Part shown: positions 33,985 to 54,102 of the stretch, piece by piece | Layout of the letters: the number at the start of each line of letters is the position of its first letter | How positions within the stretch are numbered: position 1 is the first letter of the stretch | Assembly (NCBI GenBank): GCA_944376605.1 | Contig: CALWDE010000006.1 | Coordinates: forward strand, 1-64,000 | Length of the DNA: 64,000 bases | Direction of reading: 5' to 3' | From: an uncultured Bacilli bacterium | GTDB taxonomy: Bacteria > Bacillota_I > Bacilli_A > RFN20 > CAG-826 | Program-made: the position numbers and the translations under genes | Notes under the pieces: generated by a model | Database searches by the model: none | What the model was told of the DNA's origin: nothing | The model's input: the letters and a program-made list of their open reading frames with translations, nothing else

Positions 33985-34059
33985 GGATGCTTAGCTCAGC
34001 GGGAGAGCATCGCCCTTACAAGGCGGGGGTCGGGGGTTCGAAACCCTCAGCATCCACCA
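33985..34059 (+). tRNA. tRNA-Val (TAC)
   Basis: Acceptor GGATGCT pairs with AGCATCC, the discriminator is A and CCA is encoded. The anticodon loop CTTACAA gives TAC, reading GUA and the other valine codons by wobble. First of five tRNAs in one transcript. Confidence 0.97.
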
Positions 34060-34082
34060 CCATTAACGTGCATCCAATTGAT

Positions 34083-34166
34083 GGGCGAATAGCGAAGTGG
34101 CCAAACGCGGCTGACTGTAAATCAGCTCCTTCGGGTTCGGTGGTTCAAATCCATCTTCGCCCACCA
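34083..34166 (+). tRNA. tRNA-Tyr (GTA)
   Basis: Acceptor GGGCGAA pairs with TTCGCCC, discriminator A, encoded CCA. The anticodon loop CTGTAAA gives GTA. A long variable arm (CTCCTTCGGGTTCGG region) matches the class II form of bacterial tyrosine tRNA. Confidence 0.95.
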
Positions 34167-34169
34167 CTT

Positions 34170-34244
34170 TGGGGTGTAGCCAAGTGGTAAGGCAAGAGAC
34201 TTTGACTCTCTGATGCGCTGGTCCAATTCCAGCCACCCCAGCCA
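34170..34244 (+). tRNA. tRNA-Gln (TTG)
   Basis: Acceptor TGGGGTG pairs with CACCCCA, discriminator G, encoded CCA. The anticodon loop CTTTGAC gives TTG, reading CAA and CAG. Confidence 0.96.
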
Positions 34245-34247
34245 GAT

Positions 34248-34322
34248 CCTCCGTTAGCTCAGTGGTAGAGCACTTGACTTTTAATCAAGGGGTCGACGGT
34301 TCGAGCCCGTCACGGGGGACCA
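34248..34322 (+). tRNA. tRNA-Lys (TTT)
   Basis: Acceptor CCTCCGT pairs with ACGGGGG with one T-G pair, discriminator A, encoded CCA. The anticodon loop CTTTTAA gives TTT, reading AAA and AAG. Confidence 0.95.
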
Positions 34323-34353
34323 GGACCTTGAAACCTCTTCCCTTATATAACTC

Positions 34354-34439
34354 GCCTAGGTGGCGGAATGGTAGACGCAAGGGACTTAAAATCCCTCGGG
34401 GGCAACTCCATGTCGGTTCGAGTCCGATCCTGGGCACCA
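34354..34439 (+). tRNA. tRNA-Leu (TAA)
   Basis: Acceptor GCCTAGG pairs with CCTGGGC, discriminator A, encoded CCA. The anticodon loop CTTAAAA gives TAA, reading UUA and UUG. The long variable arm (CGGGGGCAACTCCATG region) fits leucine. It closes the tRNA operon, 31 nt after tRNA-Lys. Confidence 0.97.
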
Positions 34440-40353: not shown

Positions 40354-40731
40354 TTAAATAGAATGCCCTAGTTTCAATAAATGTTGATATATTCTTTTAT
40401 CATAACGAAATTCTCTCTCTAAGAGGATAGCACCCCTATCAATATGAGCCTTAAAATAAGTCGAGAACAAACAATCTTCTGATATGTTCTTTTTTTCAAA
40501 TTCACAAATTAAAAATGAATATAACGCATCGTAAGGCCCACATACTGTCTCTCTAGACAATTCTAGTCCATTACTATCGGTCATCAAGTCATCTTTAGAA
40601 AGAGGAATATCGAGTCGAATGGACAATGCAATTGCAATTTTTGAAAGTGCAAATGGTTGAAGCCCATTTGAACTTTTTATCTCACTAAAAATTCGCTTAG
40701 TGTTTGCTGACGTTTTAAGCCTATTCCCCAT
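40354..40731 (-). CDS. dndE: DNA phosphorothioation protein DndE-like
   Basis: DndE is a small tetrameric protein that binds nicked DNA in the DndCDE phosphorothioation complex. The 125-aa protein matches in length and pattern: RLKTSANTKRIFSEIKSSNG at the start (DndE R-x-x-x-x-x-x-x-x-x-L), IAIALSIRLDIP in the middle, and the closing HIDRGAILLEREF, which follows the family H-x-x-R-G-x-x-x-L. It is the last gene of the operon and overlaps dndD by 11 bases. The match is at pattern level; gene order gives most of the confidence. Confidence 0.78.
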   Translation of the reverse strand: MGNRLKTSANTKRIFSEIKSSNGLQPFALSKIAIALSIRLDIPLSKDDLMTDSNGLELSRETVCGPYDALYSFLICEFEKKNISEDCLFSTYFKAHIDRGAILLEREFRYDKRIYQHLLKLGHSI

Positions 40732-42820
40732 AACGAACTACCTCACCAAAGTATTCATTCTCTCTCAAAGTTGTACCATTAACACCGTTATTTACTAAAG
40801 TGTAAGTTCTAGCTAGATATGGCTTTAGAATGTTTAAGGTTAGTTGGTTAATTTCTTCATCAGTTGATAAAACTATTACTTGCCCATGCAGCTTTATCAA
40901 TAAATTTTCAATTAAACTTTTTCTGTGTTGTGTATCTATGCGCCCAAAGGGGGTATCAATAACAAACGGCATTGGCCTTTCTCCAAGCGAGCTTAATGCT
41001 CCATATAAACACATTAAATAAACTTGCCACTCTCCTTTCGAAAACAGATTTTCATCCATTTTTAAAGAGAGCTCAGTTTTCTCTTCCAACCCTTCATCTT
41101 GTAGTTCATCAAATGCCAATTGTCCATACACTCTTATAAATTCATTCTCGCCAAGCTCGTCCAAAATATGCCGCATAGATTTCGTTGAACAAGTAGTTTT
41201 TCGATATGGATACACTTGAAGTTCGTTGTCTATTTCCAAGCCAGAAATTAGGTTCTTTTTGTTAATTATCGAATTAAATAATTTTAAAAACGCGTCTCTT
41301 AAATAATGTACCTGTTCTCGAAACAAATGAATTTCATACTCGGAAAAACTATTGTACATTCTAAAGAACAATTCTTTTGAGGATTTCTCACGTAGCTCAC
41401 GGGAGCACTCTTCTTCGGCTGATAAAAAATCTTTTTGTATTTTTTCATACTCACTACTAATGAGTGAGTAACGTTCTTGTTCCGCTAACAATTTTTGATG
41501 AATAGAAGCTTGTTCTTTATTTAATTTATGCATATTTTTTTCGAACATTATCGTTCTGTCTTTTGATGCGCTAGATAAAGTGTTTCTTAACTCTTTTTGT
41601 GTCTTACTTGAACTTGTTATTTCTTCTTCTAAAGCAATATAACGACCAGTATCTAAAGAAAAAGCATGACTAGTTTGCTCTCTTATCTTTTCCTTATCTA
41701 AAGATGAGAGACTATAAAAAATTGGTTCTGGCCCTTCTTTTGAATAATCATGAAAATATGAAAGAAGTAAATCATACGTTTGCCCTCCAATTATCTTAAT
41801 AAGATCTTCTTTAACACTTGATTTTTCAAAATAAGAAAATATCGTTTCTTTCGCAAAATTGTCCGCACTATAGTCAAGTTTGCTCAAAGCTTTTTTAATT
41901 TGATTTTTCATCAATAATATTGGCAGTGAACTATTAGCAAACTCTTTCAATTCTAAACGCTTTTTCTCACGCCTTTGTGTCTCTTTTACTATAACATCTT
42001 GAAGATATTTCTCCTCTTTCTCAGAAATGCCTCCCGAACGGAAAAATGACTTAGTGTCACTCTCAATTTTGGCAGTAATAGATTCATATTTTTCTTTATA
42101 TAAACTAACTTTAGCGGCAACCTCTTCTTGCTGTTTTTTGATATTGAAGTACCGTTCTTTTAGTAATTTATATTTTGCTGAAGCATTCCTTTTTACTACC
42201 TTTTCAAGAGATAATTCCCGCAAAACCCTTACCAAAATATCAAAATTTTCCAATCCAGTTAATGACAAGAGAGTGTCTTTAAATCCTTTTCCATCCTTAA
42301 AAAAATCAGTAAGATTTTCTCCGTCAAAAAAATAGAAATTAAACAAAGAAATAGGAAGGTATTTATGTATCGACGCTTCAAATTCATCTTGTTCAGCAGT
42401 ATTTAACTGCCGTTCATTCATATGGTATCCATCAGGCAAAAATTTATATGAAATCACTTCTTCAATTTTAGGTTCATTTAATATCCAACGGCGTTCTATG
42501 CTATAGATGCCCATCGGATGTCGGCCATCGTCTAACCGTAGAGATAAACGAACTGAAGCGTTACCACTAACTTTATGCTGTTCTTTCTGATTAATTAGGT
42601 TTCTTAAATGAGCTGTATATTTTCTTCCCCTAGAAGACAACCCGTATGCTTGAGGCCCGTATAATGCTAATCGAATCGCCTGAAATAATGTAGTTTTCCC
42701 AGCTCCGTTCTTCCCACCAAGAAGCACTATTTTCCTAATTGAAGAGGAGGGGGATAATTCAAAAACATGTATTCCTTCATAAGACGCTAAATTTTCTATT
42801 TGAAGACGAGTAAAAATCAT
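40721..42820 (-). CDS. dndD: DNA phosphorothioation protein DndD (SMC-like ATPase)
   Basis: The 699-aa protein has a RecN/SMC-like ATPase head and coiled coil. The Walker A motif is GGKNGAGKTTLFQAIRLALYG (about residues 35-55). The family hallmark FYFFDGENLTDFF is at about 160-172. Long coiled coils with Lys/Glu repeats fill 200-560. The C-terminal LSKGEWQVYLMCLYGALSSL is the signature region and MPFVIDTPFGRID is the Walker B-D-loop. DndD drives phosphorothioate addition with DndC and DndE. The start overlaps the dndC stop (ATGA). No zinc-hook Cys pair is visible, unlike the second ATPase in the same operon. Confidence 0.88.
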   Translation of the reverse strand: MIFTRLQIENLASYEGIHVFELSPSSSIRKIVLLGGKNGAGKTTLFQAIRLALYGPQAYGLSSRGRKYTAHLRNLINQKEQHKVSGNASVRLSLRLDDGRHPMGIYSIERRWILNEPKIEEVISYKFLPDGYHMNERQLNTAEQDEFEASIHKYLPISLFNFYFFDGENLTDFFKDGKGFKDTLLSLTGLENFDILVRVLRELSLEKVVKRNASAKYKLLKERYFNIKKQQEEVAAKVSLYKEKYESITAKIESDTKSFFRSGGISEKEEKYLQDVIVKETQRREKKRLELKEFANSSLPILLMKNQIKKALSKLDYSADNFAKETIFSYFEKSSVKEDLIKIIGGQTYDLLLSYFHDYSKEGPEPIFYSLSSLDKEKIREQTSHAFSLDTGRYIALEEEITSSSKTQKELRNTLSSASKDRTIMFEKNMHKLNKEQASIHQKLLAEQERYSLISSEYEKIQKDFLSAEEECSRELREKSSKELFFRMYNSFSEYEIHLFREQVHYLRDAFLKLFNSIINKKNLISGLEIDNELQVYPYRKTTCSTKSMRHILDELGENEFIRVYGQLAFDELQDEGLEEKTELSLKMDENLFSKGEWQVYLMCLYGALSSLGERPMPFVIDTPFGRIDTQHRKSLIENLLIKLHGQVIVLSTDEEINQLTLNILKPYLARTYTLVNNGVNGTTLRENEYFGEVVRYGE

Positions 42821-44187
42821 TTGTTGTCCCCCTTATTTAGGTGGAGATATTCTTTGGAAAGAATTTGTTTTATCTTATTTCGAATGTTTTCTCCGCGTCT
42901 AACAGTTTTGTTTTTATCAATATAGTCAAGACACTGCATAATTTCAGGAAACGGCAAGGAATCCTTTGAACATAGATTTTTAATTTCCTTTGCGGTTTCT
43001 TGACTTAATAAAGCTGTTTTTGATTCATCCCACGGCAACTTTTTCCCAGTAATCTGAGCATATAAATCAACTAGTCTTCTACGGCTAAAATCGCCTTCTG
43101 CTTCCCAATATTTTTCAATTAGTTGTAACTCCTCTATCGACACTAACGAAAAACCAGTTCTCTTCTCTAACAGAAGAAGGCGCCGCAAAATCTCTTCTCT
43201 AGCTTCTAATTTGAATGGGCCAAGGCCTAGTGACCCATCACTTTTTTGATAGACCTTCCCATTAGCTCTATGTGATTCCCTATAGGAGGGATCTTGTCGA
43301 ATGGAAACTAACCAGTTTCGAAAATCCCTTAAAGGAATTAACTCGTTAGAACCCTTATGAATAAAGTTTTGTAATGATTTATCTTCTTTTACGATTGTGC
43401 AACACCAACACCCAAATCTGCTATTCCCTGTTACTGGAATTTTGGAATAATCAAGTTGTCCAAGGACAGAAGCTTCTTCTGTTAAGCTTTCGCCTTGATA
43501 CATTGCATATAATTGATTAACACTTGTTCCCCAGGGAGTTTTTCCATTGTTTTTAAGTAGATAGAACCAAACTTCAGAATTTGGAATTTCTGTTAATGGA
43601 TTAAAAACCCACGCTTCAGGTATATCCTCATGATGCTGGAGCAATTTTCCTTCTATTTCACGCGATTCAATATTTCTTTTTCTTGTGCCAGATTCTCCTT
43701 TTCTTACTCCCAGTAAGATAATAACTTCACCATACTTTTGAATAATTTCATTTACGAAACGATTCATCGGGTGAATTTTTAACCGTTCTGTACACCATCG
43801 AAAACCTGGCGGTTCTGGAGTAGGATACCCTTTCCCAATAACAAGTGTCCAAAAAGATTCTTCTGGCTTTGGATAAATAATTTCTGAATAAATATTTAGA
43901 TGATGTTCCTTTGAATATGCGCCAATCGCTTTATTAGAAGAATGCATATAATTCGCAACAACTGGATTTTCTAGCCCAGTGTCACTCGAAACGACAAAGA
44001 TGGGTTTCCATCTTCTTTCTTCTGGTATTCTTTGCATCATTTCAAAGCAAAGCGTAACCAGTAATGTTGAATCCTTTCCGCCTGAGTAACCTATCATCCA
44101 TGGACGCTTGTCATGAAGATAGACAAGTTTCATTTCTTCAAGGACATTATGAAATAAATTTATATTAAAAGAACACATGTTACTCAT
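42817..44187 (-). CDS. dndC: DNA phosphorothioation protein DndC (PP-loop ATPase/reductase-like)
   Basis: DndC activates sulfur for insertion into the DNA backbone. The 456-aa protein has the PP-loop MIGYSGGKDSTLLVTL at about residues 31-46 and iron-sulfur ligand candidates FRWCTERLKIHP (about 130) and RFGCWCCTIVKED (about 257), in the DndC order of PAPS-reductase-like core and 4Fe-4S cysteines. GVRKGESGTRKRN is a conserved nucleic-acid-proximal loop. The gene overlaps its neighbours at both ends (8 and 4 bases). No cysteine desulfurase (DndA) is in the window; a housekeeping IscS would have to supply sulfur. Confidence 0.92.
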   Translation of the reverse strand: MSNMCSFNINLFHNVLEEMKLVYLHDKRPWMIGYSGGKDSTLLVTLCFEMMQRIPEERRWKPIFVVSSDTGLENPVVANYMHSSNKAIGAYSKEHHLNIYSEIIYPKPEESFWTLVIGKGYPTPEPPGFRWCTERLKIHPMNRFVNEIIQKYGEVIILLGVRKGESGTRKRNIESREIEGKLLQHHEDIPEAWVFNPLTEIPNSEVWFYLLKNNGKTPWGTSVNQLYAMYQGESLTEEASVLGQLDYSKIPVTGNSRFGCWCCTIVKEDKSLQNFIHKGSNELIPLRDFRNWLVSIRQDPSYRESHRANGKVYQKSDGSLGLGPFKLEAREEILRRLLLLEKRTGFSLVSIEELQLIEKYWEAEGDFSRRRLVDLYAQITGKKLPWDESKTALLSQETAKEIKNLCSKDSLPFPEIMQCLDYIDKNKTVRRGENIRNKIKQILSKEYLHLNKGDNK

Positions 44188-44701
44188 TGCTAGAATTCTT
44201 TAGGTTAGGATCCTTCACCAATTTTGTAATCTCATCAAAGATGGCAATACTAATCACGTCTGGCTGAGAAGAATGCTTATAATTTTGAAGTTTAGCTAGC
44301 AAAAACATCACTCCTGTTCTGGCAAATGGTTCCAAAAGTTTATGACGATCGCTAGGAGCACCTTCATAAAAGAAAAGATTAAGTCGTTCAATATCTGTCA
44401 TGTCTGGATTTACGATTTTATTAAAAAGCATGACGGCATATAAATCGTTTATTAATTCTTCAATAGACTTATTTAGAAGTACTGAGTAAGGAATTTCTAT
44501 AGGGGTCTGCGCATCATCATTTATAAATTCCGGTGTTTGTTTATTTATAAAAAGTCCAATGCTCGCACAAAAAAGATACATCTCCGCAGCTGTTTTAAAG
44601 AAATGTCCCCCTTCTTTTTCTACCAGAAGACGACGACACTCTTGCCAAGGTTCGCCATAGAGTCTCAAAGAAGTAGTAATTCTATTATCGCTAGTACTCA
44701 T
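44180..44701 (-). CDS. 173-aa protein of the Dnd-linked operon, unknown
   Basis: The 173-aa protein has no signal or membrane segment. The N-terminal part (ITTSLRLYGEPWQECRRLLV, then FFKTAAEMYLFCASIGLFIN) has the charged-helix-hydrophobic-helix pattern of DndE-type small proteins, followed by a helical C-terminal half with LLEPFARTGVMFLLAKL. Length is greater than DndE (about 125) and I do not recognise a named family. The gene overlaps dndC by eight bases and the DndD-like ATPase upstream by four, so it is translated with them. A DndE-like structural role is a guess. Confidence 0.6.
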   Translation of the reverse strand: MSTSDNRITTSLRLYGEPWQECRRLLVEKEGGHFFKTAAEMYLFCASIGLFINKQTPEFINDDAQTPIEIPYSVLLNKSIEELINDLYAVMLFNKIVNPDMTDIERLNLFFYEGAPSDRHKLLEPFARTGVMFLLAKLQNYKHSSQPDVISIAIFDEITKLVKDPNLKNSSNE

Positions 44702-46749
44702 TTTTCTCCCCCTTCTGCAAAAAATGCATCAGCATCTGAAAAACTGATTTCTTCAAGTCGAGCTTTTTGGGACTCACCTTTAATTGCATAAACTTTGCCA
44801 ATATTGATACCCTCAAGTGCTGAATTTAAATTACGATTGGAAAGAATAATGACTTGTTTAGGAATGCTTTGGAAATGTTGCAAAGCACGTTCTTCCTGCT
44901 CAGCATCAGTTTCGGAAAATGGAGCATCTATGACCAGAGGATATTCGCTAATAACCTTTATATCGTCCTCGGTTTCGTCGCTAGAACATTCCGTTAACAC
45001 CTTTAATAAGCCAAGAACATAACTATATGAGGCAACAGCTGCCTGCCCTCTAGTGGTATAAGTGATACCTTGTTCTCTTACAGTTAAATGAAAATCGCTA
45101 TCCAGTCTCACTTCCTTACGAGAACCTGTAAGCATGCTGTTTAATAATCTCTCAATTTCATGTTCAATATTTCTTCGAACATTTTCAATACGAGAATCTG
45201 CAAATCGTTCCAAATTCTCAGCAACATTTTCAGCAATTTCTGCCGCAATACGCGATTGTTCCGCTATTTTTTGTTGCTTTAATTGTTCCAACCATTTTGT
45301 TTCTATGTCTCTTAATTTTTTCTCATAGAAGTTAATAAGTTTTTCACATTGAGATATTTTTCTAATAACATCGTCTCTGGCACGAATTTTCTCTGTTTTT
45401 TCTTCATAAAGATTATCAACGTTTTTCCCACCAAATTTTCTAATTTGACTTTCTTGATCTTGAATTTTTATATTTAAGTCACTAATTTCGTCCAAATCTT
45501 GATATAGAATTTTTGCTTGGTCTAATAAATTAGGTATAAGTTGTGATCTAGTTATATTAAGCGACCCTTGGGCATTAGATAAAAACGATTCGTATGCTGT
45601 ACGATAAGAATTGGGTGGCAATGCACGAATATATTCGCTAAACAACTCTTCTTCCCTTTTCCCAATTTCATGCCCACATATACATTTATGCCTAGAAATT
45701 AATTCTCTTAATATCGGTCCACTTAAGCCTTCAGGTAAATCAAACTTTTCTACCGAATCTGGCTTTAGTCGATTTGCCTGCACAACATCCAACTTTACCA
45801 TATAGGTAAGTAGCGCTTGTCCAAACGAAATAGAAAGATTTATTGTACTGCTTTCATGTTGTTTTTCTTTCTTTTCCTTTTCGCTTTCCAAATTCTTTAA
45901 TATGATATTCAGTTCTTTAAGATTTGGCATATCACCAATTTCTTTTTCAAGCTCTGCAATTTCATGATTTAAAATCTCTAACTTTTCTTGGTAATTTTTG
46001 AAATATGATTTTTGAATGGACAAACTCCATGTAAGGTTGTTCTTCTCAGACTTTATTTCATCGTCTTTTTCAAAATTGTATCCTTCTAAATCATGATTTA
46101 TTTGTCCTAAAACTGTCCACTTAGTAGTTTTAGTTCCTAATATATCAATAGCGGTTTTATATACATTAGTTCTAAAAAGAACACTGACAGCAACACTAAG
46201 GCCTTCAGCGTTTAAATCCTTTTTGGTATTTACCCAATTATCTGCAAATTTTTCCCCATCAAAGAAAAAATATGCAGCCAAAGATTTAGGCAAAATTTCA
46301 GTAATTGCTCTTTCAAGACCTCTTACATCATAAGGTAGCGGTTTTTCTCCTTTATCATCATCGTTTTGCCTATATATCCTAAGTTCATCATCTGCTGAAA
46401 GATGTCTAACTCCTCCATCGTTTTTCTTAAGATAATGCCAACGACGAATTACACGATACTGTTTATCATCGTGAGTAAAACTAATGCATCCCTCTACGCA
46501 TATTTGATTTCCTTCAGTTGTTGCATTAATCTCATCGATATTTGGCAAAGAGTTATCATCAAAACCAATATTTAATGGCAATGAACCATATAAAATCCAG
46601 CGAAAAAGTTGTAAGAGTGTCGTCTTCCCAAATCCGGAGCGTCCATAAATAACATTAATAGAGTCGGTAGAAAATGAAATTGGGTTATCTTGGCTGCCTA
46701 ACTTTCGGTAGTTCCGAAAGTTTTTTGCCCAAATACTTTTAATTAGCAT
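44698..46749 (-). CDS. Second SMC/DndD-like ATPase of the Dnd-linked operon
   Basis: Starting at ATG 46749 (GAGGAGGAAG just upstream) the protein has 683 aa. It shows the Walker A YGRSGFGKTTLLQLFRWILY (about residues 36-55), the DndD-type hallmark AAYFFFDGEKFADNW (about 158-172), coiled coils (about 235-300 and 420-540), a CICGHEIG cysteine pair at about 356-359 in the middle, like a zinc hook, and PLVIDAPFSETDAEQ near the C-terminus (Walker B). The same operon also encodes the canonical DndD, so this is a second ATPase. It may power the helicase-nuclease rather than sulfur insertion. Confidence 0.85.
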   Translation of the reverse strand: MLIKSIWAKNFRNYRKLGSQDNPISFSTDSINVIYGRSGFGKTTLLQLFRWILYGSLPLNIGFDDNSLPNIDEINATTEGNQICVEGCISFTHDDKQYRVIRRWHYLKKNDGGVRHLSADDELRIYRQNDDDKGEKPLPYDVRGLERAITEILPKSLAAYFFFDGEKFADNWVNTKKDLNAEGLSVAVSVLFRTNVYKTAIDILGTKTTKWTVLGQINHDLEGYNFEKDDEIKSEKNNLTWSLSIQKSYFKNYQEKLEILNHEIAELEKEIGDMPNLKELNIILKNLESEKEKKEKQHESSTINLSISFGQALLTYMVKLDVVQANRLKPDSVEKFDLPEGLSGPILRELISRHKCICGHEIGKREEELFSEYIRALPPNSYRTAYESFLSNAQGSLNITRSQLIPNLLDQAKILYQDLDEISDLNIKIQDQESQIRKFGGKNVDNLYEEKTEKIRARDDVIRKISQCEKLINFYEKKLRDIETKWLEQLKQQKIAEQSRIAAEIAENVAENLERFADSRIENVRRNIEHEIERLLNSMLTGSRKEVRLDSDFHLTVREQGITYTTRGQAAVASYSYVLGLLKVLTECSSDETEDDIKVISEYPLVIDAPFSETDAEQEERALQHFQSIPKQVIILSNRNLNSALEGINIGKVYAIKGESQKARLEEISFSDADAFFAEGGEK

Positions 46750-46936
46750 TTTCTTCCTCCTCTTTGATTTTTTCTTTAACTTTTTCAATTAACATGCTGT
46801 ATAAACTTGCAGCAGCAGCCTTTTTTGCAGAAGAAGTTACTACGATTCCGTCTTGATCATTTGTTGCTTTTGCAGCTGCATGTATCGCTTCTTTTAATAA
46901 CAGTTCTTCTATTTGAGCTTTATTCAAATCAGTCAT
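46739..46936 (-). CDS. 65-aa small protein of the Dnd-linked operon
   Basis: This 65-aa protein is helical and rich in Ala, Lys and Glu (AIHAAAKATNDQDGIVVTSS then KVKEKIKEEEENAN). It overlaps the helicase stop by eight bases and the ATPase start by 11, which supports its being translated. It has no recognisable motif. It may be a small subunit of the helicase-ATPase module. Confidence rests on the overlaps rather than on homology. Confidence 0.6.
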   Translation of the reverse strand: MTDLNKAQIEELLLKEAIHAAAKATNDQDGIVVTSSAKKAAAASLYSMLIEKVKEKIKEEEENAN

Positions 46937-49100
46937 CGCAAACTTCCATCCTTTCTGTAGCTTCTTCCATACATGTTTCGTTTAAGTTTTCTGCCATAAA
47001 CGTTTCCTCGATACCACCTAAGCCATATTGTTGAAGTAAATTAGAAAGGATTTTGTGTAACCCGTTTTCTCCTTCCCAGTTTCTAGCAAGTTTTCCAAAT
47101 TCATAAAATCTGCGAAATTCATATTTAGCTAAGGATTGTGTACCATTAGTTGGTAAACAAATGACATCAAAAATGGTTGCGTGGTCTTTGTGACCACTCT
47201 TTGCCTTTCTCAGAATACGGCCTCTACGCTGAATGAATTCGCGAATAGATGAACCACTGGCTAAAATTAATGCACCTTCAATTGAAGGCAAATCAATGCC
47301 TTCGTCTAAGCAACGTATTGCAGTAATAATGTCTATTTCGCCGTTCTCAAATCCATTTAAAATTAATTCACGTTCTTTTCGGTTTTCTCTACTTGTAAAT
47401 GGTGATGTGTGAAGAGAGTGATTACATTCGTCTATATGATTGTTTACAAAATTTATATATCGAAGTTCTTCCGTTTCCTTTCCGTGAATATCTCCCGCTC
47501 CACAATAAATAATTAGGTGATGCTGTAAATGACAAAAAACTTTTTTCAAGATTTCATTTATTGCATTCATCTTTTCTGAACATGTTGCAGGAATTAAGGA
47601 TCTTTTTCTTATGGCTGCACCTAACAAAGAATAATCCTTATCTTCGCTTTCAAGGATTGTAGCAATTTTTTGTGTGTACGCCTTAAATTCCTCTTCCTCC
47701 TCTGCCGTTGAATAACAAAAGATTGGTATGTAATCATAGGGTACTAAAACTCCAATTTTTAATGCTTCTTCTAAAGGAAGGCGAATGGCGTATCCGCCAA
47801 AAAAACGAACCAATTCATCTCCTGATTTATCAAATGGTAAACCTGTTCCTGGTGTTGCACTAAGCCCCAACTTATAAGTAAAGATTTCGTTTGCTCTTTC
47901 GTAATTTTTAAAGTGATGTGCTTCATCGGCCACTAGTAGTTTTTTTATTGTTTTATTCATTCCTAAAATATCAAATAACTTATTAATAGACCGATAAGTA
48001 ACGAGCAAAATTGAAGGCTTAGACAAGCTACTTAATCGCATTTGATTGATCAAGCGCTGCACTTGATTTTCCCATTCAAAGCCTTGAGAACTACAAATGA
48101 TTACATTCGTATCTATATATTTTCTAAGTTCTTCTTCCCATTGGTCTGCTAAAGCCAGTAAAGGAACGGCGGCAACCACCAAACAATTTGGTTCTTGCTC
48201 CCACAAAGTTTTTATTGATTCAATGGCGGTAATTGTTTTGCCTGTACCAGTTGCCATTTCATAAAAACCATTGAATCCCAACTCCGTCCATTTCTGAATT
48301 GCATCTTTTTGATATTGCCTTAGTTGAATTTCAGGAATTTTCTTTATAGAAGTTATTTCTACATAATTTTGAACTTCTTCTACTAAATTACTTTTTCGCT
48401 GAAAAGAAACTAATTTGGACAGCACAGCATCACTAAAATTTCGTCGAACAAGCCACTTATCATTTCCAGAAAGAATATTGGACAACTTTTGAGTAACATC
48501 TTCTACATATTTTTCTTCACCAAATTCCCAAGAGCGCATAACTTGGAAATATTCATGATTCCAAAACCCCTCTTTTCCTGTTAGAGCTGATAAAGTAAAA
48601 TTTCCACTCCCATTGAAAGTGACAATATTGCCGTAATCATCTAAAAAATATCCACACTTTTCATGAGAGATTCCCGAAGAACGAAAAGGGCCAACACACA
48701 AGATATCTAATCGTTTCGAAGCAATTAATTCCTTTAATAATTTGCTAGCAGTTTCATCTTTTTGATTAATCTCATCTATTACACTTAATAAATACTCAAG
48801 CGATTCATCAAAAGCCCAATTCACACGCTTTTGATAACCTTCAGTGATAGCATCTTTATCTTCGTCTTTGATTAGACAACAAGTAATGAAGGTGATTTTT
48901 CCATTATTAATTAGTAATTCCTTAATTCCAGGAAGAAGTGATAAAAGAGTATTACTAGTGAAAAAACCGAATAGAGCACAAAATTCACTGGATTGGCGCA
49001 AACACGGGATGAAAAAATCATCCGCTATAGGAGTTTCTGGGGTGTTTGTATAGCGATAGGTTAAATTGAATATTTTTCTCAAATTTCCATCTCTAAACAT
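46929..49100 (-). CDS. PLD-like nuclease fused to DEAD/DEAH helicase, Dnd-linked effector
   Basis: The protein of about 723 aa has two parts. The N-terminal domain (to about residue 240) contains ISHEKCGYFLDDYG followed by FNGSGNFT, an H-x-K and G-S-x-N pair typical of phospholipase D-type nucleases. The C-terminal helicase domains carry Walker A MATGTGKTITAIES (about 285-298), LLVADEAHHFKN (DEAH box), KLGLSATPGTG and motif VI DEGIDLPSIEGA ... REFIQRRGRIL. It resembles proteins annotated as restriction enzymes of phosphorothioation systems. It leads the operon; the ATG at 49100 is preferred over a TTG two codons earlier. The run of nine G lies 33-41 nt upstream. Confidence 0.88.
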   Translation of the reverse strand: MFRDGNLRKIFNLTYRYTNTPETPIADDFFIPCLRQSSEFCALFGFFTSNTLLSLLPGIKELLINNGKITFITCCLIKDEDKDAITEGYQKRVNWAFDESLEYLLSVIDEINQKDETASKLLKELIASKRLDILCVGPFRSSGISHEKCGYFLDDYGNIVTFNGSGNFTLSALTGKEGFWNHEYFQVMRSWEFGEEKYVEDVTQKLSNILSGNDKWLVRRNFSDAVLSKLVSFQRKSNLVEEVQNYVEITSIKKIPEIQLRQYQKDAIQKWTELGFNGFYEMATGTGKTITAIESIKTLWEQEPNCLVVAAVPLLALADQWEEELRKYIDTNVIICSSQGFEWENQVQRLINQMRLSSLSKPSILLVTYRSINKLFDILGMNKTIKKLLVADEAHHFKNYERANEIFTYKLGLSATPGTGLPFDKSGDELVRFFGGYAIRLPLEEALKIGVLVPYDYIPIFCYSTAEEEEEFKAYTQKIATILESEDKDYSLLGAAIRKRSLIPATCSEKMNAINEILKKVFCHLQHHLIIYCGAGDIHGKETEELRYINFVNNHIDECNHSLHTSPFTSRENRKERELILNGFENGEIDIITAIRCLDEGIDLPSIEGALILASGSSIREFIQRRGRILRKAKSGHKDHATIFDVICLPTNGTQSLAKYEFRRFYEFGKLARNWEGENGLHKILSNLLQQYGLGGIEETFMAENLNETCMEEATERMEVCDD

Positions 49101-49106
49101 ATGCAA

Positions 49107-49311
49107 AAACCAAGGAGTTCTTCGATAGGATACCCCCCCCCTGAAATTGTATTGACAAGTGCTATTTACAATTTATTTTCTGCAAATTGAAAAGTGATTT
49201 TAGATACCCAAGTGAAAAAATACGCGATAAATTATCAAGAAATAGAAGTTAATTGCACAATGTAACCATATTAATGCTTTGTTAGGGTCTACGTTGTCTT
49301 GATAAACAAAC
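49107..49311 (-). promoter_or_regulatory. Upstream region of the Dnd-linked operon
   Basis: This 205-nt gap lies between the HNH gene stop (49312) and the helicase start (49100). It holds the G tract and candidate promoter boxes (minus strand TTGTCA, TACAAT, TATCCT). No ATG-initiated frame runs through the tract into the helicase; the frame is open but has no normal start. No terminator for the HNH gene is evident, so read-through is possible. Confidence 0.5.
49133..49141. repeat. Homopolymer of nine C (G on the minus strand) in the promoter region
   Basis: Nine consecutive C on the plus strand, equal to nine G on the coding strand, sit 33-41 nt before the helicase ATG. On the minus strand they lie between TTGTCA and TATCCT with a 20-nt spacer, or just after a TACAAT. 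Such tracts change length by slipped-strand mispairing. Confidence 0.85.
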
Positions 49312-50343
49312 TTAAAAACTCTCTAAATCGCTTTCATGAGAAAGAATAAAATTTTGGTAAAAGCGATCTACATAATTGTGTTGGTTTGCAAAGGATAATT
49401 CTTGGTAAAATTGGCTCTTCTTTGGCAGTCTTTCTAGGAGATAAGCATTTCTCTTTTTTAACTTTTCAATAACATTTTTTGAGGGATATAAATCGCCCTT
49501 TTGAGAATTAAAAGATTTTGAAGTGAGCACTAAATTCCATATATCATCGCTATAAAGATACGTCCAAGGAATAACGTGATCTACAGATATATTGTCTAAA
49601 GCAATAATGGTGTCGGTATAAAAATCATAAATAGAAATGTTGTAATAGGCATCACATAGCGCCTTTTTATATCTCCCCAAATTATTTCTGTGAATTTCCT
49701 CTTTTGAAGCAGCAATCACCTTTTGTGCTATTCGAGGACAATCATTAAATCTTTCTAAAATACTAACCCATTTTAAATTATCAATATCCACTAAAATATC
49801 GTAGTATTGCTGCAATAATTTCACTTGATCGTCTGAAAAATAAATAGCACGTTCCCCTTTTTGATATTCATAGAGTTGTACGATTTTAGAGTCGATATTT
49901 TTAAAACGGAAAGCAACGTTCTGAGGAAAAACATTTGTTATGTCTTTAATTGTTTTTTCATAGACACTTTTCTTTTCGACATTTTCTTCAAAAAAACACA
50001 AAGCATCAGAAAACCATATGGGTTTCTTCAAATTAATTATATAAAAATAGGAATCTATAAGTTTTTTAACATGTTGCACAATAACAGGAGCCTCTTTTCT
50101 TTTAGATGGTGTGCTCTGTTTTAAATCAAAAAAACAAATTTGATTCCAGTAATAGCGAATAACCCTTCTTGCAATGCTATCAAAAGTAACTTGAACACGA
50201 TTTTGAAAAATAAAAAAGTCATTTTGGTGGAGACAGTCAAGAATCGCTCTTGCCCATGCAGGTTTATAAGTATTGTCAAAATGCATATTTTCCAACACTC
50301 TAATCCATTCACGAATATAAAAAGGGAGCGAATAGGTTTCCAT
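49312..50343 (-). CDS. HNH endonuclease-domain protein next to the Dnd-linked operon
   Basis: The 343-aa protein has a C-terminal HNH-type motif at about residues 252-288: SVDHVIPWTYLYSDDIW followed by NLVLTSKSFNSQKGD, with the D-H and N...N...K spacing of the HNH fold. The N-terminal 240 residues (FYIREWIRVLENMHF, TYKPAWARAILDCLH) resemble helper domains of HNH restriction proteins, but no sulfur-binding domain could be recognised by eye. It is on the same strand, 205 nt upstream of the Dnd-linked operon. TATGAT (50355-50350) ends 6 nt before the ATG, so leaderless initiation is likely. A link with phosphorothioation is inferred from location. Confidence 0.75.
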   Translation of the reverse strand: METYSLPFYIREWIRVLENMHFDNTYKPAWARAILDCLHQNDFFIFQNRVQVTFDSIARRVIRYYWNQICFFDLKQSTPSKRKEAPVIVQHVKKLIDSYFYIINLKKPIWFSDALCFFEENVEKKSVYEKTIKDITNVFPQNVAFRFKNIDSKIVQLYEYQKGERAIYFSDDQVKLLQQYYDILVDIDNLKWVSILERFNDCPRIAQKVIAASKEEIHRNNLGRYKKALCDAYYNISIYDFYTDTIIALDNISVDHVIPWTYLYSDDIWNLVLTSKSFNSQKGDLYPSKNVIEKLKKRNAYLLERLPKKSQFYQELSFANQHNYVDRFYQNFILSHESDLESF

Positions 50344-50375
50344 GATTGAATCATAAAAGAGAAAGAGCTTCCGTT

Positions 50376-50939
50376 CTAGTCTTCTCTTCTTAGAATCGCA
50401 TTGACCCAGTTTATGTTTCTTTCCCCTAATTGGTCCTTAGTTAAGAAAAGCTTCTCCGCAACAAAGGGGGTATGCGAAAGAAATTCTTCGAAAGAAGATA
50501 AGGTGAAATCATGGTAATAACGCCCATCTCTTTCTCCAGTAAAGTTGCCTTCTTTGAAGCTACAGTAAAGCACTCCACCCTTTTTTAAGGCACAATATAA
50601 GCGAAAGAAAACATCACTAAGATTTTGGCAATGAAGTAAAGACGCAGAAGCCCATATCGCGTCATATTTTTCTTTTTCTTCCAAATCTTCTACCTTCTTA
50701 AAAAAGACAAGAAATCCCTCTAAAGAAGCCTCTTTTACAAAGGTTTTGCAAGAATCAATTCCTTCTACCTCATAGCCAAGAGAGGAAAAATAAGCCATAT
50801 CACGGCAGGAGGCAAAACCAACGTCCAAAATTTTTGCCTTTTTCGGCAAATAAGATAAAAAGATTGCGTAAAGAGAAGACATATCTACTTTTCTCGCTTG
50901 AGAGAGATATTCTTCTGCATGCTCCTCATAATAATTCAT
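50376..50939 (-). CDS. Class I SAM-dependent methyltransferase
   Basis: The 187-aa protein begins YYEEHAEEYLSQARKV and carries motif I ILDVGFASCRDMAYF (about residues 37-51; DVGxxxCRD type), motif II VEGIDSCKTFV, and IWASASLLHC (about 92-101). The length and lack of other domains place it with TehB/UbiE-like small-molecule methyltransferases. The substrate is unknown. It is 32 nt downstream of the convergent-direction HNH gene but on the same strand upstream of it, so it could be co-transcribed; its own promoter was not clear. Confidence 0.8.
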   Translation of the reverse strand: MNYYEEHAEEYLSQARKVDMSSLYAIFLSYLPKKAKILDVGFASCRDMAYFSSLGYEVEGIDSCKTFVKEASLEGFLVFFKKVEDLEEKEKYDAIWASASLLHCQNLSDVFFRLYCALKKGGVLYCSFKEGNFTGERDGRYYHDFTLSSFEEFLSHTPFVAEKLFLTKDQLGERNINWVNAILRRED

Positions 50940-51018: not shown

Positions 51019-54000
51019 TTATTTTCTCTTTATAAGATAAATCGTAACACCTGCAATTAAAGCCAAAGCAGCAACTCCACCAATTGTTCCGCCAACAATA
51101 GCAGGAACGTTCATACCGCCTTCAGCAGGAGCATCGCCCCCTTCGCTACTAGAAGAACTATTTCCATCGCTAGAAGAAGATGGCTCGCTCGAGCTTATCG
51201 TCGAACTGCTTGAAGAAGAATCAGAGGGCAAAGAAGAGCTAACCTCTTCCCAAGTGGCGTAAACATGAATATCGCCATTTGGCATTTGTTCAAAAGGAAT
51301 ATCCCACCCTGTGAAAATATATCCTTCCTTTGTCGGATCAATAGCAGGAAGAGAGATAGGAGCTCCCACTTCTACTTCCATCTCTTCATAAGCTTCGCTA
51401 TCGCCTTCATTTAAGTAGAAAGAGACGGTCCACTTATTTAGTTCCACTCCGCTTACAGTAAGTACAATATTTTCTTCTACATTTTCAAGAAGATAACTGC
51501 CGTCAGCTAAAGCAGAAAGCACTTTTCCGTTCGCTTCTACGGTAATAGAACTCTTTGAGTAGTAATCCTCTAAAGTAATACCAAAGGCAAGATCATCACC
51601 TTTTAAGACTACTTCAGGAAGACTAGTAAACTGATAACCAGTGCCATTTTCTCCAGTGATAGTGCACTCTTCTAAAGCATTTTCTTCTACAAGCTGTAAA
51701 TAATCGTAATTAATCCAACCACCAGAATTTAAGGCGCTCGTAATAGTGATGGTGTGATTACCACGTGCCAAATCGACACCCACAGAGGCATATTGCCCGT
51801 GTCCTCCACACCAGTCATTTGTATTTAAATTATTGAGTTCCAACCACTCCCCATCATCAATGCGATAGGCAATATTTGTGCTTGTACTTGTAGCATAACC
51901 AAGACGCATTTCGTAATGGGCAGAAGAAGGTGCATTCACATCAAAACGTAGATAGCTAATGTTAGATAAATCCTCAGCAATCTCGTCGGTCGAATTAGGA
52001 TAATTTGGATTACTTGTGTCGTATCCCATCGAACCAACATATGCACCATTAGACCAGAACTGCTCACCTTCAGCGCTTGAAACACTTCCTCCCTGCCGAT
52101 AAGCATCTTCTGCTTCATAAGTTTCATACTGGTAGCGGCGGACATAAGGATCATCTCTCCCAAGCATTTCCGCTACCTTTTTAGAAAGAATAGAAGCCAT
52201 TTCGTCATGATTTAAAGCATTTGGATGGCCACTATCTCCGTGCATTAGTTGAGGGAATTCCACAAAAGCAATATTCTCATCTCCAATTCCTTCAATAGCG
52301 CTGCGATACTCTTCGATGTAGTCACGATTAAAGAAAGAGCCGTAGCAAAAGATAATCTTTGCTTTGGGATAAGCTTCTCTTAAAGTGGCAGCAAAGCTTG
52401 TTGCTTCCCTTGTAAAATCATCAATACTCGTACCAAAGGTCGACATAATTGCCTGCCCAAGGTCATTGGAACCAAGCCCTACCACCATTACATCCGGGGC
52501 ATCGTTTTCTCTTAAAGTGTTGGAGTCACGGAAATAAGACTGATACTTCCAAATATCTTTCATTTGGTTTTCTTGGGAAGCAGCCCAGCCATTTTCTGAG
52601 TTATACCCCTCCATTAAACCTCTTCCCGATGTAGCGAGAATATCAAAGGAAGCTCCATAGGCTTTTGAGAGAAGAACAGCATACCCTTCGTACACATTTT
52701 CGTCCCCTAAAGAGATTTGATTTGCCGCAGTAATAGAGTCCCCTAAAAATTCAAATTTAAGGGAGTCCTCTTGCTGAGAAGGCTTCGTGATACTTGCCTC
52801 TTCATCAATTGATAAACTTGTAATGGAGGCAAGATTACCAGCAGCTTCACTAGTCTTATAAAGAGAAATGGTTCTTTCTCCCTCAGGTAAATCAGTGAAA
52901 AGAGTCATCGAAGAGGAAAGAGAAACGTAATGAGAAAATTCCCCGTCTACTTCCACGGCATAACGGCTATTCTGATTGTTTCCAAGCACAGAAGCATTTA
53001 ACAAAATATCACCGCTTCCGTGATGAACAAAAGAAATGCCACTTCCAGACCAGTCGGTAGTAATCTCTCCTGTTATCTCTAAACTTCTTCCGTGAATCGT
53101 AACGAGGTTTTTAAGCTCCTCGGCAGAAATTACTTTTAGTCCTGAAGCAGGATCTTCATCCACTTCACTTGACTCTCTTACTTCATGAATTTGAATGGAA
53201 GCACCAGAAGTATCGCCGCTTAAGCGCATATAATTTTCTTCTTCAGGCAAAAAACCAATACGATCTAACTGATAAGAAGGAAGGTGAACTGTTACTTTTT
53301 CCCCAACAGGATAAGAAGATAAATCCACATTAAATCCTGCCTCAATTCCTCCTATTTCTACACGAAGCGTGGCATTAGAGCCAGAAAGTACTGTTAAATC
53401 AACATCGAGAGAATGCGTCGAACTAGCAGGAGTTAAAAACAAGATTGCCGCGCCTTCATAGTCAGCGCTTGTATCGTAAGGGAGTCCTCCGTAGCTAATA
53501 TCCGCTTCCGCGTCAAAAAGAAGAGAGAAATCGGAAAGATGAGTAGCTTGGAAAAGCATGTCTTCTTGTTGATAAGTGCCTTCTTCTATTGAGGAGGGGA
53601 AAGAAACATTCAGTTCGTTAGGTAAATCAAATGTCTCTACTCTCCCCCACTGATTCACTTGGAAGACAACAACGTTTTTCCCTTCTTCTAAATTTAAAGT
53701 GATTTCACTAGATCCTCCTGCCCAGTTATTGCTTGGCAAGGTCATACTTTGAACGTTATCCTGAGAGTTTGTATAAACATTCATCGCATAATCGCCAGAA
53801 GCGTAATGAATGACAGCTTGATAAGCACCAGCACTAGGAGCTTCAATCACCCAGCGAGAATAAGAGGCTTCATTAGAAGATAAATTTGGCATCAAATTTT
53901 GTTGCCAATTGGTCCCAAAACCTACTCTTTCCTGGCCGTAATTTCCTCCGTCTGTAGCCGGATAACGGACGTGAGCAAGATAGGAATATTCAATAAACGA

Positions 54001-54102
54001 ATAAGAAGTAGCATTTTCTGCTGCTAAAGCAGGGAGCTCTCCTCCGATAGAGGAGGCTCCTAGTGCAGCAGCAAGAAGTAACAAAGAAAAATGAATACTC
54101 AT
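51019..54102 (-). CDS. Large membrane-anchored CE2-type SGNH esterase with CBM and InlB-like repeat
   Basis: The 1027-aa protein has a signal peptide (about residues 1-28), an N-terminal beta domain, a CE2-type jelly roll and SGNH hydrolase core: FEFLGDSITAAN (Ser about 455), VVGLGSNDLG (Asn about 546) and GDSGHPNALNHDE (His about 627). A CBM35-like domain follows (about 660-810, TYEAEDAYRQGGSV and GGWINYDYLQL), then an InlB B-repeat (about 890-950), a Ser-rich linker, and a C-terminal membrane helix with IKRK. It should be exposed on the cell surface and deacetylate glycans such as acetyl-xylan. The start overlaps the paralogue upstream (ATGA). Confidence 0.87.
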   Translation of the reverse strand: MSIHFSLLLLAAALGASSIGGELPALAAENATSYSFIEYSYLAHVRYPATDGGNYGQERVGFGTNWQQNLMPNLSSNEASYSRWVIEAPSAGAYQAVIHYASGDYAMNVYTNSQDNVQSMTLPSNNWAGGSSEITLNLEEGKNVVVFQVNQWGRVETFDLPNELNVSFPSSIEEGTYQQEDMLFQATHLSDFSLLFDAEADISYGGLPYDTSADYEGAAILFLTPASSTHSLDVDLTVLSGSNATLRVEIGGIEAGFNVDLSSYPVGEKVTVHLPSYQLDRIGFLPEEENYMRLSGDTSGASIQIHEVRESSEVDEDPASGLKVISAEELKNLVTIHGRSLEITGEITTDWSGSGISFVHHGSGDILLNASVLGNNQNSRYAVEVDGEFSHYVSLSSSMTLFTDLPEGERTISLYKTSEAAGNLASITSLSIDEEASITKPSQQEDSLKFEFLGDSITAANQISLGDENVYEGYAVLLSKAYGASFDILATSGRGLMEGYNSENGWAASQENQMKDIWKYQSYFRDSNTLRENDAPDVMVVGLGSNDLGQAIMSTFGTSIDDFTREATSFAATLREAYPKAKIIFCYGSFFNRDYIEEYRSAIEGIGDENIAFVEFPQLMHGDSGHPNALNHDEMASILSKKVAEMLGRDDPYVRRYQYETYEAEDAYRQGGSVSSAEGEQFWSNGAYVGSMGYDTSNPNYPNSTDEIAEDLSNISYLRFDVNAPSSAHYEMRLGYATSTSTNIAYRIDDGEWLELNNLNTNDWCGGHGQYASVGVDLARGNHTITITSALNSGGWINYDYLQLVEENALEECTITGENGTGYQFTSLPEVVLKGDDLAFGITLEDYYSKSSITVEANGKVLSALADGSYLLENVEENIVLTVSGVELNKWTVSFYLNEGDSEAYEEMEVEVGAPISLPAIDPTKEGYIFTGWDIPFEQMPNGDIHVYATWEEVSSSLPSDSSSSSSTISSSEPSSSSDGNSSSSSEGGDAPAEGGMNVPAIVGGTIGGVAALALIAGVTIYLIKRK

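What the first reader, a model, noticed from the sequence alone, without database searches (positions are those of the whole stretch)
40354..49106. DNA phosphorothioation operon with a non-canonical effector module
Seven genes overlap head to tail: a PLD-like-nuclease/DEAH-helicase fusion, a 65-aa protein, a DndD-like ATPase, a 173-aa protein, DndC, DndD and DndE. dndA and dndB are missing and no DptF/DptG/DptH-type genes are present. The modification core (DndC PP-loop with Cys cluster, DndD FFDGE hallmark, DndE) is thus translationally coupled to a different, helicase-nuclease-led module. A restriction or replication-blocking role for this module is inference. PT-coupled alternatives to DndFGH (for example PbeABCD in archaea) are known, and I cannot tell whether this set equals one of them.
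Basis: partly seen in the sequence, partly recalled or inferred. Interest (0 to 1): 0.85.

Follow-up and report, generated by a model that had tools for sequence, protein, structure and literature searches.

The report
Known sulfur-DNA defence operon, G-tract promoter
Seven overlapping genes in a small-genome bacterium form a known antiviral system that marks the cell's own DNA with sulfur and blocks unmarked DNA; the new point is a run of nine Gs in its likely promoter that could switch the whole system on and off.

Summary
The set is an already named system: DndCDE phosphorothioate (PT) modification coupled to PbeABCD. The four leading genes match PbeA, PbeB, PbeC and PbeD by profile hits for PbeA and PbeC, order and size, an invariant CICG Zn-hook in PbeC, HKD residues in PbeA and a weakly supported DndE-like fold for the 173-aa protein. 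dndB and DndH were not found in the genome, with working controls. dndA is absent from the cluster, but SufS- and NifS/IscS-like genes lie elsewhere. Operon, HNH gene and methyltransferase gene form a low-GC island; two same-genus genomes carry it at other sites.

Three additions. (1) A G9 tract, the assembly's only run of nine or more Gs, lies between promoter-like hexamers 32 nt before pbeA. G9 and G8 tracts stand before the two related operons. Phase variation is plausible but not shown. (2) In 9 of 27 loci classified, PbeABCD follows Ssp-type PT genes instead of DndCDE. (3) Clostridial counterparts carry a dndB-like gene.

The parts
46929..49100 (-). pbeA: HKD/PLD-like nuclease half fused to SF2 helicase (ORF listed to TTG 49106; ATG 49100 more likely)
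   Evidence: PADLOC PbeA E 5.3e-158; Pfam ResIII, DEAD, Helicase_C; TIGR04095 318 bits, below its cut-off of 600; H148, K150, D156, G166, S167, N169 invariant in 9 sequences. No Pfam PLD hit.
46739..46936 (-). pbeB: 65-aa small protein
   Evidence: No family hit. Assigned by size (66 aa in Xiong 2019) and position; 69-aa ORFs at the same place in G018 and G032; a 51-69-aa ORF between PbeA and PbeC in 20 of 24 named PbeA/DndC loci, none found in 2, and 2 not examined.
44698..46749 (-). pbeC: Rad50/SMC-like ABC ATPase with CICG Zn-hook (CxC clade)
   Evidence: PADLOC PbeC E 1e-60; CICG invariant in 9 of 9; profile matches Rad50 structures.
44180..44701 (-). pbeD: 173-aa DndE-like protein (dnd_assoc_4 type)
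   Evidence: TIGR04062 E 0.0082, below cut-off; 45% identical over 136 aa to G018/G032 PbeD; AlphaFold pLDDT 64; DndE 7x4e Z 6.3, 4lrv 5.6, 5wtu 4.9.
42817..44187 (-). dndC: PP-loop sulfurtransferase
   Evidence: TIGR03183 372 bits, cut-off 290.4; SGGKDST; C132, C260, C263 invariant in 4 sequences.
40721..42820 (-). dndD: ABC ATPase without C-x-C
   Evidence: TIGR03185 260.9 bits, cut-off 245.85; PADLOC DndD E 2.7e-93; no C-x-C.
40354..40731 (-). dndE: tandem RHH DNA-binding protein (RHH from the literature)
   Evidence: PF08870 64.4 bits, cut-off 25; TIGR03184 46.8, below cut-off; PDB 7x4e DndE E 1.8e-5.
49133..49141 (-). G9 tract (reads C9 on + strand) in the pbeA leader
   Evidence: Only run of nine or more Gs in the 1.18-Mb assembly; G9 and G8 before pbeA in G032 and G018.
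49153..49158 (-). candidate -35 hexamer TTGTCA
   Evidence: 5 of 6 to TTGACA; 20-nt spacer containing the tract.
49127..49132 (-). candidate -10 hexamer TATCCT directly after the tract
   Evidence: 4 of 6 to TATAAT; TATTCT directly after the tract in G018 and G032.
49312..50343 (-). accessory HNH (HNH_4, Cas9-like HNH) protein, island companion
   Evidence: PF13395 E 5.6e-10; close to pbeA in G018 and G032 too, but also found without pbe/dnd (L080-L083).
50376..50939 (-). accessory class I SAM methyltransferase, neighbour of HNH
   Evidence: PF08241 E 9.6e-8; HNH-MT neighbours in 7 of 8 strong HNH relatives, own genome counted, the eighth cut at a contig end.

Best explanation
It is a DndCDE-PbeABCD phosphorothioate defence operon of a known kind. 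DndC, fed with sulfur by a housekeeping NifS/IscS- or SufS-like desulfurase in place of DndA, and the DndD-DndE DNA-scanning pair put sulfur into the backbone at a short motif of the cell's own DNA. PbeC (Rad50-like) with PbeD (DndE-like) form a second scanning pair. With the small PbeB they direct PbeA, a helicase joined to an HKD nuclease half, against DNA lacking the mark, so that the invader does not replicate. Gene identity and order are shown here by computation. That PbeABCD blocks replication of unmarked virus DNA, and needs PT to act, is published for an archaeal system and carried over by homology. Whether PbeA cuts DNA or only blocks replication is open; I lean to local processing by PbeA that leads to replication arrest (inference, about 0.5).
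For: Profile hits for PbeA, PbeC, DndC, DndD and DndE; sizes and order as in the archaeal system; Zn-hook, HKD and cysteine residues conserved; DndE-like PbeD fold. Co-linear operons in G018 and G032. Of 80 named DndC loci, nine have pbeA-pbeC-pbeD upstream of dndC in one direction; the seven nearest, all from clostridial or Bacilli genomes including Eubacterium brachy, have pbeA-C-D-[349-372-aa ORF]-dndC, with dndD and dndE next in six and a contig end in L093. Two desulfurases in the genome. Named plasmid example: Ruegeria THAF33, dndCDE and a desulfurase, then genes annotated as PT restriction enzyme, small protein, AAA ATPase and dnd-associated protein 4.
Against: The PbeA hit to TIGR04095, the DndE hit to TIGR03184 and the PbeD hit to TIGR04062 are below their curated cut-offs. 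PbeB has no family hit. The PLD domain is not found by Pfam. The PbeD model is of low confidence (pLDDT 64) and Foldseek's E-values are above 1. In the archaeal system deletion of pbeA left a low level of resistance, while pbeB, C and D were strictly needed, which weakens PbeA as the sole effector. Rakesh et al. 2024 question both the no-cleavage claim and the role of Pbe as a DndFGH substitute. Expression and PT in this organism are unknown.
Confidence: 0.88

Rival explanations
1. The same operon is phase-variable: the G9 tract in the promoter spacer changes length by slipped-strand mispairing, so that only some cells transcribe pbe-dnd at a time. This adds to the main explanation rather than replacing it.
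For: The tract is the only run of nine or more Gs in the assembly. Tracts of G9 and G8, directly followed by TATTCT, lie upstream of pbeA in G032 and G018, whose PbeA is only about 47% identical and whose loci lie elsewhere. Hexamer score 9 of 12 around all three tracts, against 2.7% of 1960 virtual G9 insertions upstream of 50 ORF starts. Of 13 other tracts of nine or more Gs in the 8 genus genomes searched (6 had any), 4 also score at least 9.
Against: No reads, so no length variation has been seen within one strain. Spacers are 20, 15 and 14 nt, none the usual 17; tract-to-ATG distance is 32 nt here and 46 nt in both relatives (the 32 from its coordinates). One such tract per genome is about what chance gives (0.05 per 64 kb by a Markov model), so only its place is telling. 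G018 and G032 operons are 85% identical in DNA and count as about one case. The scoring was set after seeing the sequences. Of 13 other tracts 9 score below 9, and several lie inside ORFs. Among 24 PbeA entries (23 loci) outside the genus none has a G/C run above 5 upstream, nor have 6 Ssp-Pbe loci upstream of their first gene.
Confidence: 0.45
2. PbeABCD here does not depend on the adjacent dnd genes; the two are neighbours in a defence island and act separately.
For: Pbe occurs without recognised Dnd- or Ssp-type genes in some loci, e.g. L032, L208, L209, L211-L214 (DNA methylases were not searched there). Rakesh et al. 2024 report independent occurrence.
Against: All six gene junctions overlap. 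Order is kept in nine named loci and 2 same-genus loci. The archaeal system needs PT.
Confidence: 0.08
3. Suicide model: PbeA is held back by PbeB and attacks host DNA when a virus disturbs the complex (Rakesh et al.'s alternative).
For: PbeB is small and its sequences differ much between loci; proposed in PMC10853773 section 16.
Against: In the archaeal system pbeABCD without PT was not toxic and virus DNA stayed intact.
Confidence: 0.2

Closest known systems
DndCDEA-PbeABCD of Haloterrigena jeotgali A29 (PMC6459918)
   Same: Four pbe genes in the same order with matching small-protein sizes and domains; dndC, D, E; no dndB.
   Different: Here pbe precedes dnd in one overlapping run of seven genes, dndA is missing, and a G9 tract lies in the leader.
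CxC ABC ATPase-DndE systems (Rakesh, Aravind and Krishnan 2024, PMC10853773)
   Same: HKD-SF2 helicase, small protein, CxC ATPase and DndE cognate next to a DndD-DndE pair.
   Different: No difference found in the gene set.
pbe-dnd clusters of clostridial and Bacilli genomes (L088, L089, L090, L092, L093, L094, L096)
   Same: Same order of pbeA, C, D and dndC; DndC 53-59% identical, among the closest found.
   Different: All seven carry an extra 349-372-aa ORF between pbeD and dndC, identified as DndB in the two of them scanned, L088 and L096, and in L210, which appears to be L090's record. The window, G018 and G032 lack it.
DndBCDE-DndFGH
   Same: Modification core.
   Different: DndH not found in the genome, with a working control.

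Membership tests
PbeABCD | PbeA: PLD/HKD part, res subunit, helicase C | tested here: met
   PADLOC E 5e-158, ResIII and Helicase_C, HKD residues aligned; Pfam PLD itself not hit.
PbeABCD | PbeB: about 66-aa protein between pbeA and pbeC | tested here: met
   65 aa, by size and position only.
PbeABCD | PbeC: ATPase with CxC Zn-hook | tested here: met
PbeABCD | PbeD: DndE cognate of about 150 aa after pbeC | tested here: met
   Position and size; 45% identity to genus PbeD; DndE entries are the only ones listed by pdb_via, Z 4.9-6.3 at 3.8-4.4 A. Weak on its own: profile hit below cut-off, Foldseek E above 1.
PbeABCD | PT-dependent block of virus replication | not testable with these tools
   Needs expression and infection.
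DndCDE PT modification | DndC PP-loop and cysteines, DndD, DndE | tested here: met
   DndC and DndD over NCBIfam cut-offs; DndE over Pfam's, not NCBIfam's.
DndCDE PT modification | Cysteine desulfurase supply | tested here: met
   No dndA in cluster; SufS-like and NifS/IscS-like genes elsewhere, scoring below the DndA equivalog cut-off. Use by DndC is inferred.
DndFGH systems | DndH present | tested here: not met
   No hit in own genome; hits in 3 of 6 other genomes.
Phase-variable promoter | Simple repeat between -35 and -10 | tested here: inconclusive
   Consensus hexamers flank the tract, but at spacers of 20, 15 and 14 nt.
Phase-variable promoter | Reversible length change alters expression | not tested
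   No reads or expression data.

The most novel reading that the evidence does not exclude
In this genus a whole PT modification-plus-effector operon is a contingency locus: a G8-G9 tract in the promoter spacer switches marking and attack on and off together, so that one clone holds both PT-marked, defended cells and unmarked cells. Because writer and effector share one promoter, switching off need not leave an unrestrained effector.
Probability: 0.45. Interest if true: 0.6.

Novelty: new member of a known kind. Interest (0 to 1): 0.35.

Why it matters
It places a complete PT-Pbe defence in a 1.18-Mb bacterial genome and settles that the 'different module' is PbeABCD. If the G tract switches, PT marking would be heterogeneous between cells by genetic means. 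That bears on the open question of why PT sites in populations are only partly marked, and it is testable from long reads. The Ssp-Pbe loci suggest that PbeABCD works with more than one PT writer.

Tried and rejected
A novel unnamed effector module: rejected, it corresponds to PbeABCD.

HNH plus methyltransferase as core parts: rejected as core. The pair flanks pbe in 3 of 8 strong HNH genomes (G018 and G032 close relatives; own in swapped order) but stands without pbe/dnd in 4 others (L080-L083), and G025 is cut at a contig end. Kept as island companions.

PbeA query in named genome contigs found nothing, so a DndC alignment was used instead. A scan of viral contigs for tract-length alleles of this leader found nothing. 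A pattern for 14 or more Gs with a break of up to two bases found none. PDB sequence search with DndC found nothing. No phage record matched the HNH protein. DndF search uninformative, no control rang.

Literature: searches, with passages in PMC10853773, PMC12839542, PMC8092258, PMC12707154 and PMC9239217, showed no Ssp-Pbe operon. Other papers naming both systems (such as PMC9646914, PMC8053081, PMC11662687, PMC11676413, PMC7461809) were seen in the listing only. PMC7464106 (passages) counts strains holding dnd or ssp genes together with pbeA-D, and the passages seen do not tell which are adjacent, so a near mention exists. Searches, with passages in PMC12707154, PMC9239217 and PMC9239176, showed no phase-variable PT system. 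The library is open-access only, supplements were not read, and Krishnan et al. 2020 (PMC7544218) is not held.

Full report
What is there. Seven minus-strand ORFs fill 40354-49106, none with internal stops, with overlaps of 8, 11, 4, 8, 4 and 11 bp in the order pbeA-pbeB-pbeC-pbeD-dndC-dndD-dndE. Profile scans give PbeA (E 5.3e-158), PbeC (E 1e-60), DndC, DndD and DndE, and nothing for the 65- and 173-aa proteins. NCBIfam puts DndC (372 against 290.4 bits) and DndD (260.9 against 245.85) over their cut-offs. DndE (46.8 against 71.85), PbeA as TIGR04095 (318 against 600) and PbeD as TIGR04062 (16.3 against 74.25) fall below theirs. Pfam DndE is over its cut-off.

Identity of the first four genes. 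The archaeal PbeABCD cassette encodes, in order, a PLD-res-helicase protein, a 66-aa protein, an AAA (pfam13476) ATPase and a 152-aa protein (PMC6459918 section 8). Rakesh et al. 2024 redefine these as HKD-SF2 helicase, a disordered small protein, a CxC-hook ABC ATPase and a DndE cognate (PMC10853773 section 16). In the window the ATPase has CICG, invariant in 9 of 9 aligned PbeC proteins; the window's DndD has no C-x-C. PbeA keeps H148, K150, D156, G166, S167 and N169 in 9 of 9. For PbeD an AlphaFold model from 11 sequences (pLDDT 64.3, pTM 0.63) shows, as I read it, two strand-helix-helix repeats and C-terminal helices. Foldseek ranks a DndE chain second but with E 1.5, and the second-look alignment lists only DndE entries (7x4e Z 6.3, 3.8 A over 99 residues; 4lrv 5.6; 5wtu 4.9). 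This is modest support. PbeB rests on size and position.

What is missing, tested. DndB: none by profile or by a clostridial DndB that found its match in both control genomes, one of them its own. DndH: none in G000, G018 and G032, present in 3 of 6 others. DndF: none, but no control rang. DndG was not searched. DndA: not in the cluster; a SufS-like and a NifS/IscS-like gene lie elsewhere. IscS can stand in for DndA according to the papers read.

Relatives. Of 97 genomes searched with PbeA (own included), 38 had some match, many of them short helicase stretches; 8 had a match above 200 bits (G000, G032, G018, G094, G016, G012, G067, G049). G018 and G032 (same genus) have HNH-MT-pbeABCD-dndCDE. 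Among 80 named DndC loci (the best 80 of 573), 24 hold PbeA above 100 bits. Nine of the 80 have pbeA-pbeC-pbeD upstream of dndC in one direction: L088, L089, L090, L092, L093, L094, L096, L138 and L162; in L102 dndD precedes dndC, and L114 is a short piece. In the first seven no dndA-like ORF was found, and dndD and dndE follow in six, L093 ending at a contig end. All seven have a 349-372-aa ORF between pbeD and dndC (L089 also a 642-aa one). The two scanned, L088 and L096, and also L138, are DndB over cut-off. So the window's genus has a dndB-less form of a wider clostridial/Bacilli arrangement.

Island. The operon has GC 0.344, lower than all 146 windows of equal length outside the island in the 64 kb (0.373-0.402); the HNH gene has 0.308. 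In G011 the left-flank genes are in order up to the 61%-identical hydrolase. Then come an ORF with an HTH_38 domain (IS30-like by recall) and a 44%-identical match, over 219 of 1027 aa, to the gene at 51019-54102; no pbe, dnd, HNH or MT match was found in those 20 kb. The flanks of the G018 and G032 operons do not match the window's neighbours of the operon, and their copies of the neighbouring hydrolase lie elsewhere, so the unit seems to move as a block.

The G tract. Nine Gs (49141-49133, minus strand) end 32 nt before the ATG at 49100. It is the only run of nine or more Gs in the 1.18-Mb assembly, which is 96.6% complete. Upstream of pbeA, G032 has G9 and G018 has G8, each followed at once by TATTCT and ending 46 nt before the ATG; the window has TATCCT. 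TTGTCA (window) or TTGAAA (relatives) stands 20, 15 or 14 nt before. Best hexamer score is 9 of 12 in all three; virtual G9 insertions 30-90 nt upstream of 50 ORF starts reach 9 in 2.7% of 1960 trials. Of 13 other distinct tracts of nine or more Gs (8 genus genomes searched, 6 with any), 4 reach 9: L220, L225, L226 and L228. L228, L215, L221, L222 and L224 lie inside ORFs of 120 aa or more, and G032's pbe tract lies in a mechanical ORF on the other strand. Against this reading: the count of such tracts is about what chance gives, the spacers are not 17, the score was designed after looking, G018 and G032 operons are 85% identical, and 24 PbeA entries (23 loci) outside the genus have no G/C run above 5 in 160 nt upstream plus 90 nt of gene, nor have 6 Ssp-Pbe loci at their first gene. 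I hold phase variation at 0.45.

A side result with bearing on mechanism. In 9 loci (L031, L033, L034, L200-L204, L207) PbeA follows head to tail on BrxP/SspD-like PAPS reductase, SspB, SspC and SspA/DndA-like genes. In a tenth (L205) SspB and SspC follow PbeD. PADLOC E-values in L031, L033 and L034 are 4e-77 to 8e-85 for BrxP, 3e-42 to 2e-45 for SspB and 3e-72 to 7e-87 for SspC; the other six were called with models built from these three. Eight neighbouring ORFs other than SspB/C scanned, and two, gave no PglZ or BrxL, which speaks against Type 4 BREX but does not exclude it in unscanned ORFs. The denominator is 27 loci classified: 15 fetched from the 395-genome sample (28 matches, of which 5 were already held and 8 weak or partial ones were not followed), 7 and 5 plasmid loci. 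Since Dnd and Ssp writers differ, PbeABCD probably senses PT or its own motif rather than DndCDE proteins. This agrees with the published DndA C344S result; it is inference.

Mechanism and open points. Modification by DndCDE and PT-dependent block of replication by PbeABCD are carried over from the archaeal work. There, loss of any pbe gene impaired protection (pbeA only partly needed), PT-marked virus escaped and no cleavage was seen. Rakesh et al. argue that an HKD nuclease implies cleavage. The sequence cannot decide.

Papers: PMC6459918 (abstract, passages, section 8); PMC10853773 (abstract, passages, sections 14, 16, 17, 24); PMC12839542, PMC8092258, PMC12707154, PMC7464106, PMC11931770, PMC9239217 and PMC9239176 (passages only).

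Noticed in passing
L031, L033, L034, L200-L204, L207 (and L205): PbeABCD coupled head to tail to an Ssp-type PT modification set (BrxP/SspD-like, SspB, SspC, SspA/DndA-like) instead of DndCDE; not found described as an operon in searches.
   Followed up: partly
window 49312-50939; L080-L083, L029, L030: An HNH (Cas9-like HNH_4) gene and a small class I methyltransferase gene are recurrent neighbours (7 of 8 strong HNH relatives, own included), with or without pbe/dnd: a possible two-gene module of its own.
   Followed up: partly
L218 (G032) and L226 (G025): G10 tract behind TTGAAA in the likely promoter of a similar short ORF, followed after one stop by a similar 255-aa open stretch that in L218 has a LEM-3-like GIY-YIG domain.
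   Followed up: partly
L215 (G025:C10): G9 tract inside a 399-aa ORF that begins like a C5 DNA methyltransferase (by recall of motif), possibly switched by frameshift.
   Followed up: no
L029 5845-6939: The HNH gene is split by a stop codon in G032 but is one ORF in G018.
   Followed up: no
L168 10145-11293 (G011): At the place where the window has the island, G011 has an ORF with an HTH_38 domain, IS30-transposase-like by recall.
   Followed up: no
window 33985-34439: Cluster of five tRNA genes (Val, Tyr, Gln, Lys, Leu) about 6 kb from the island edge.
   Followed up: no
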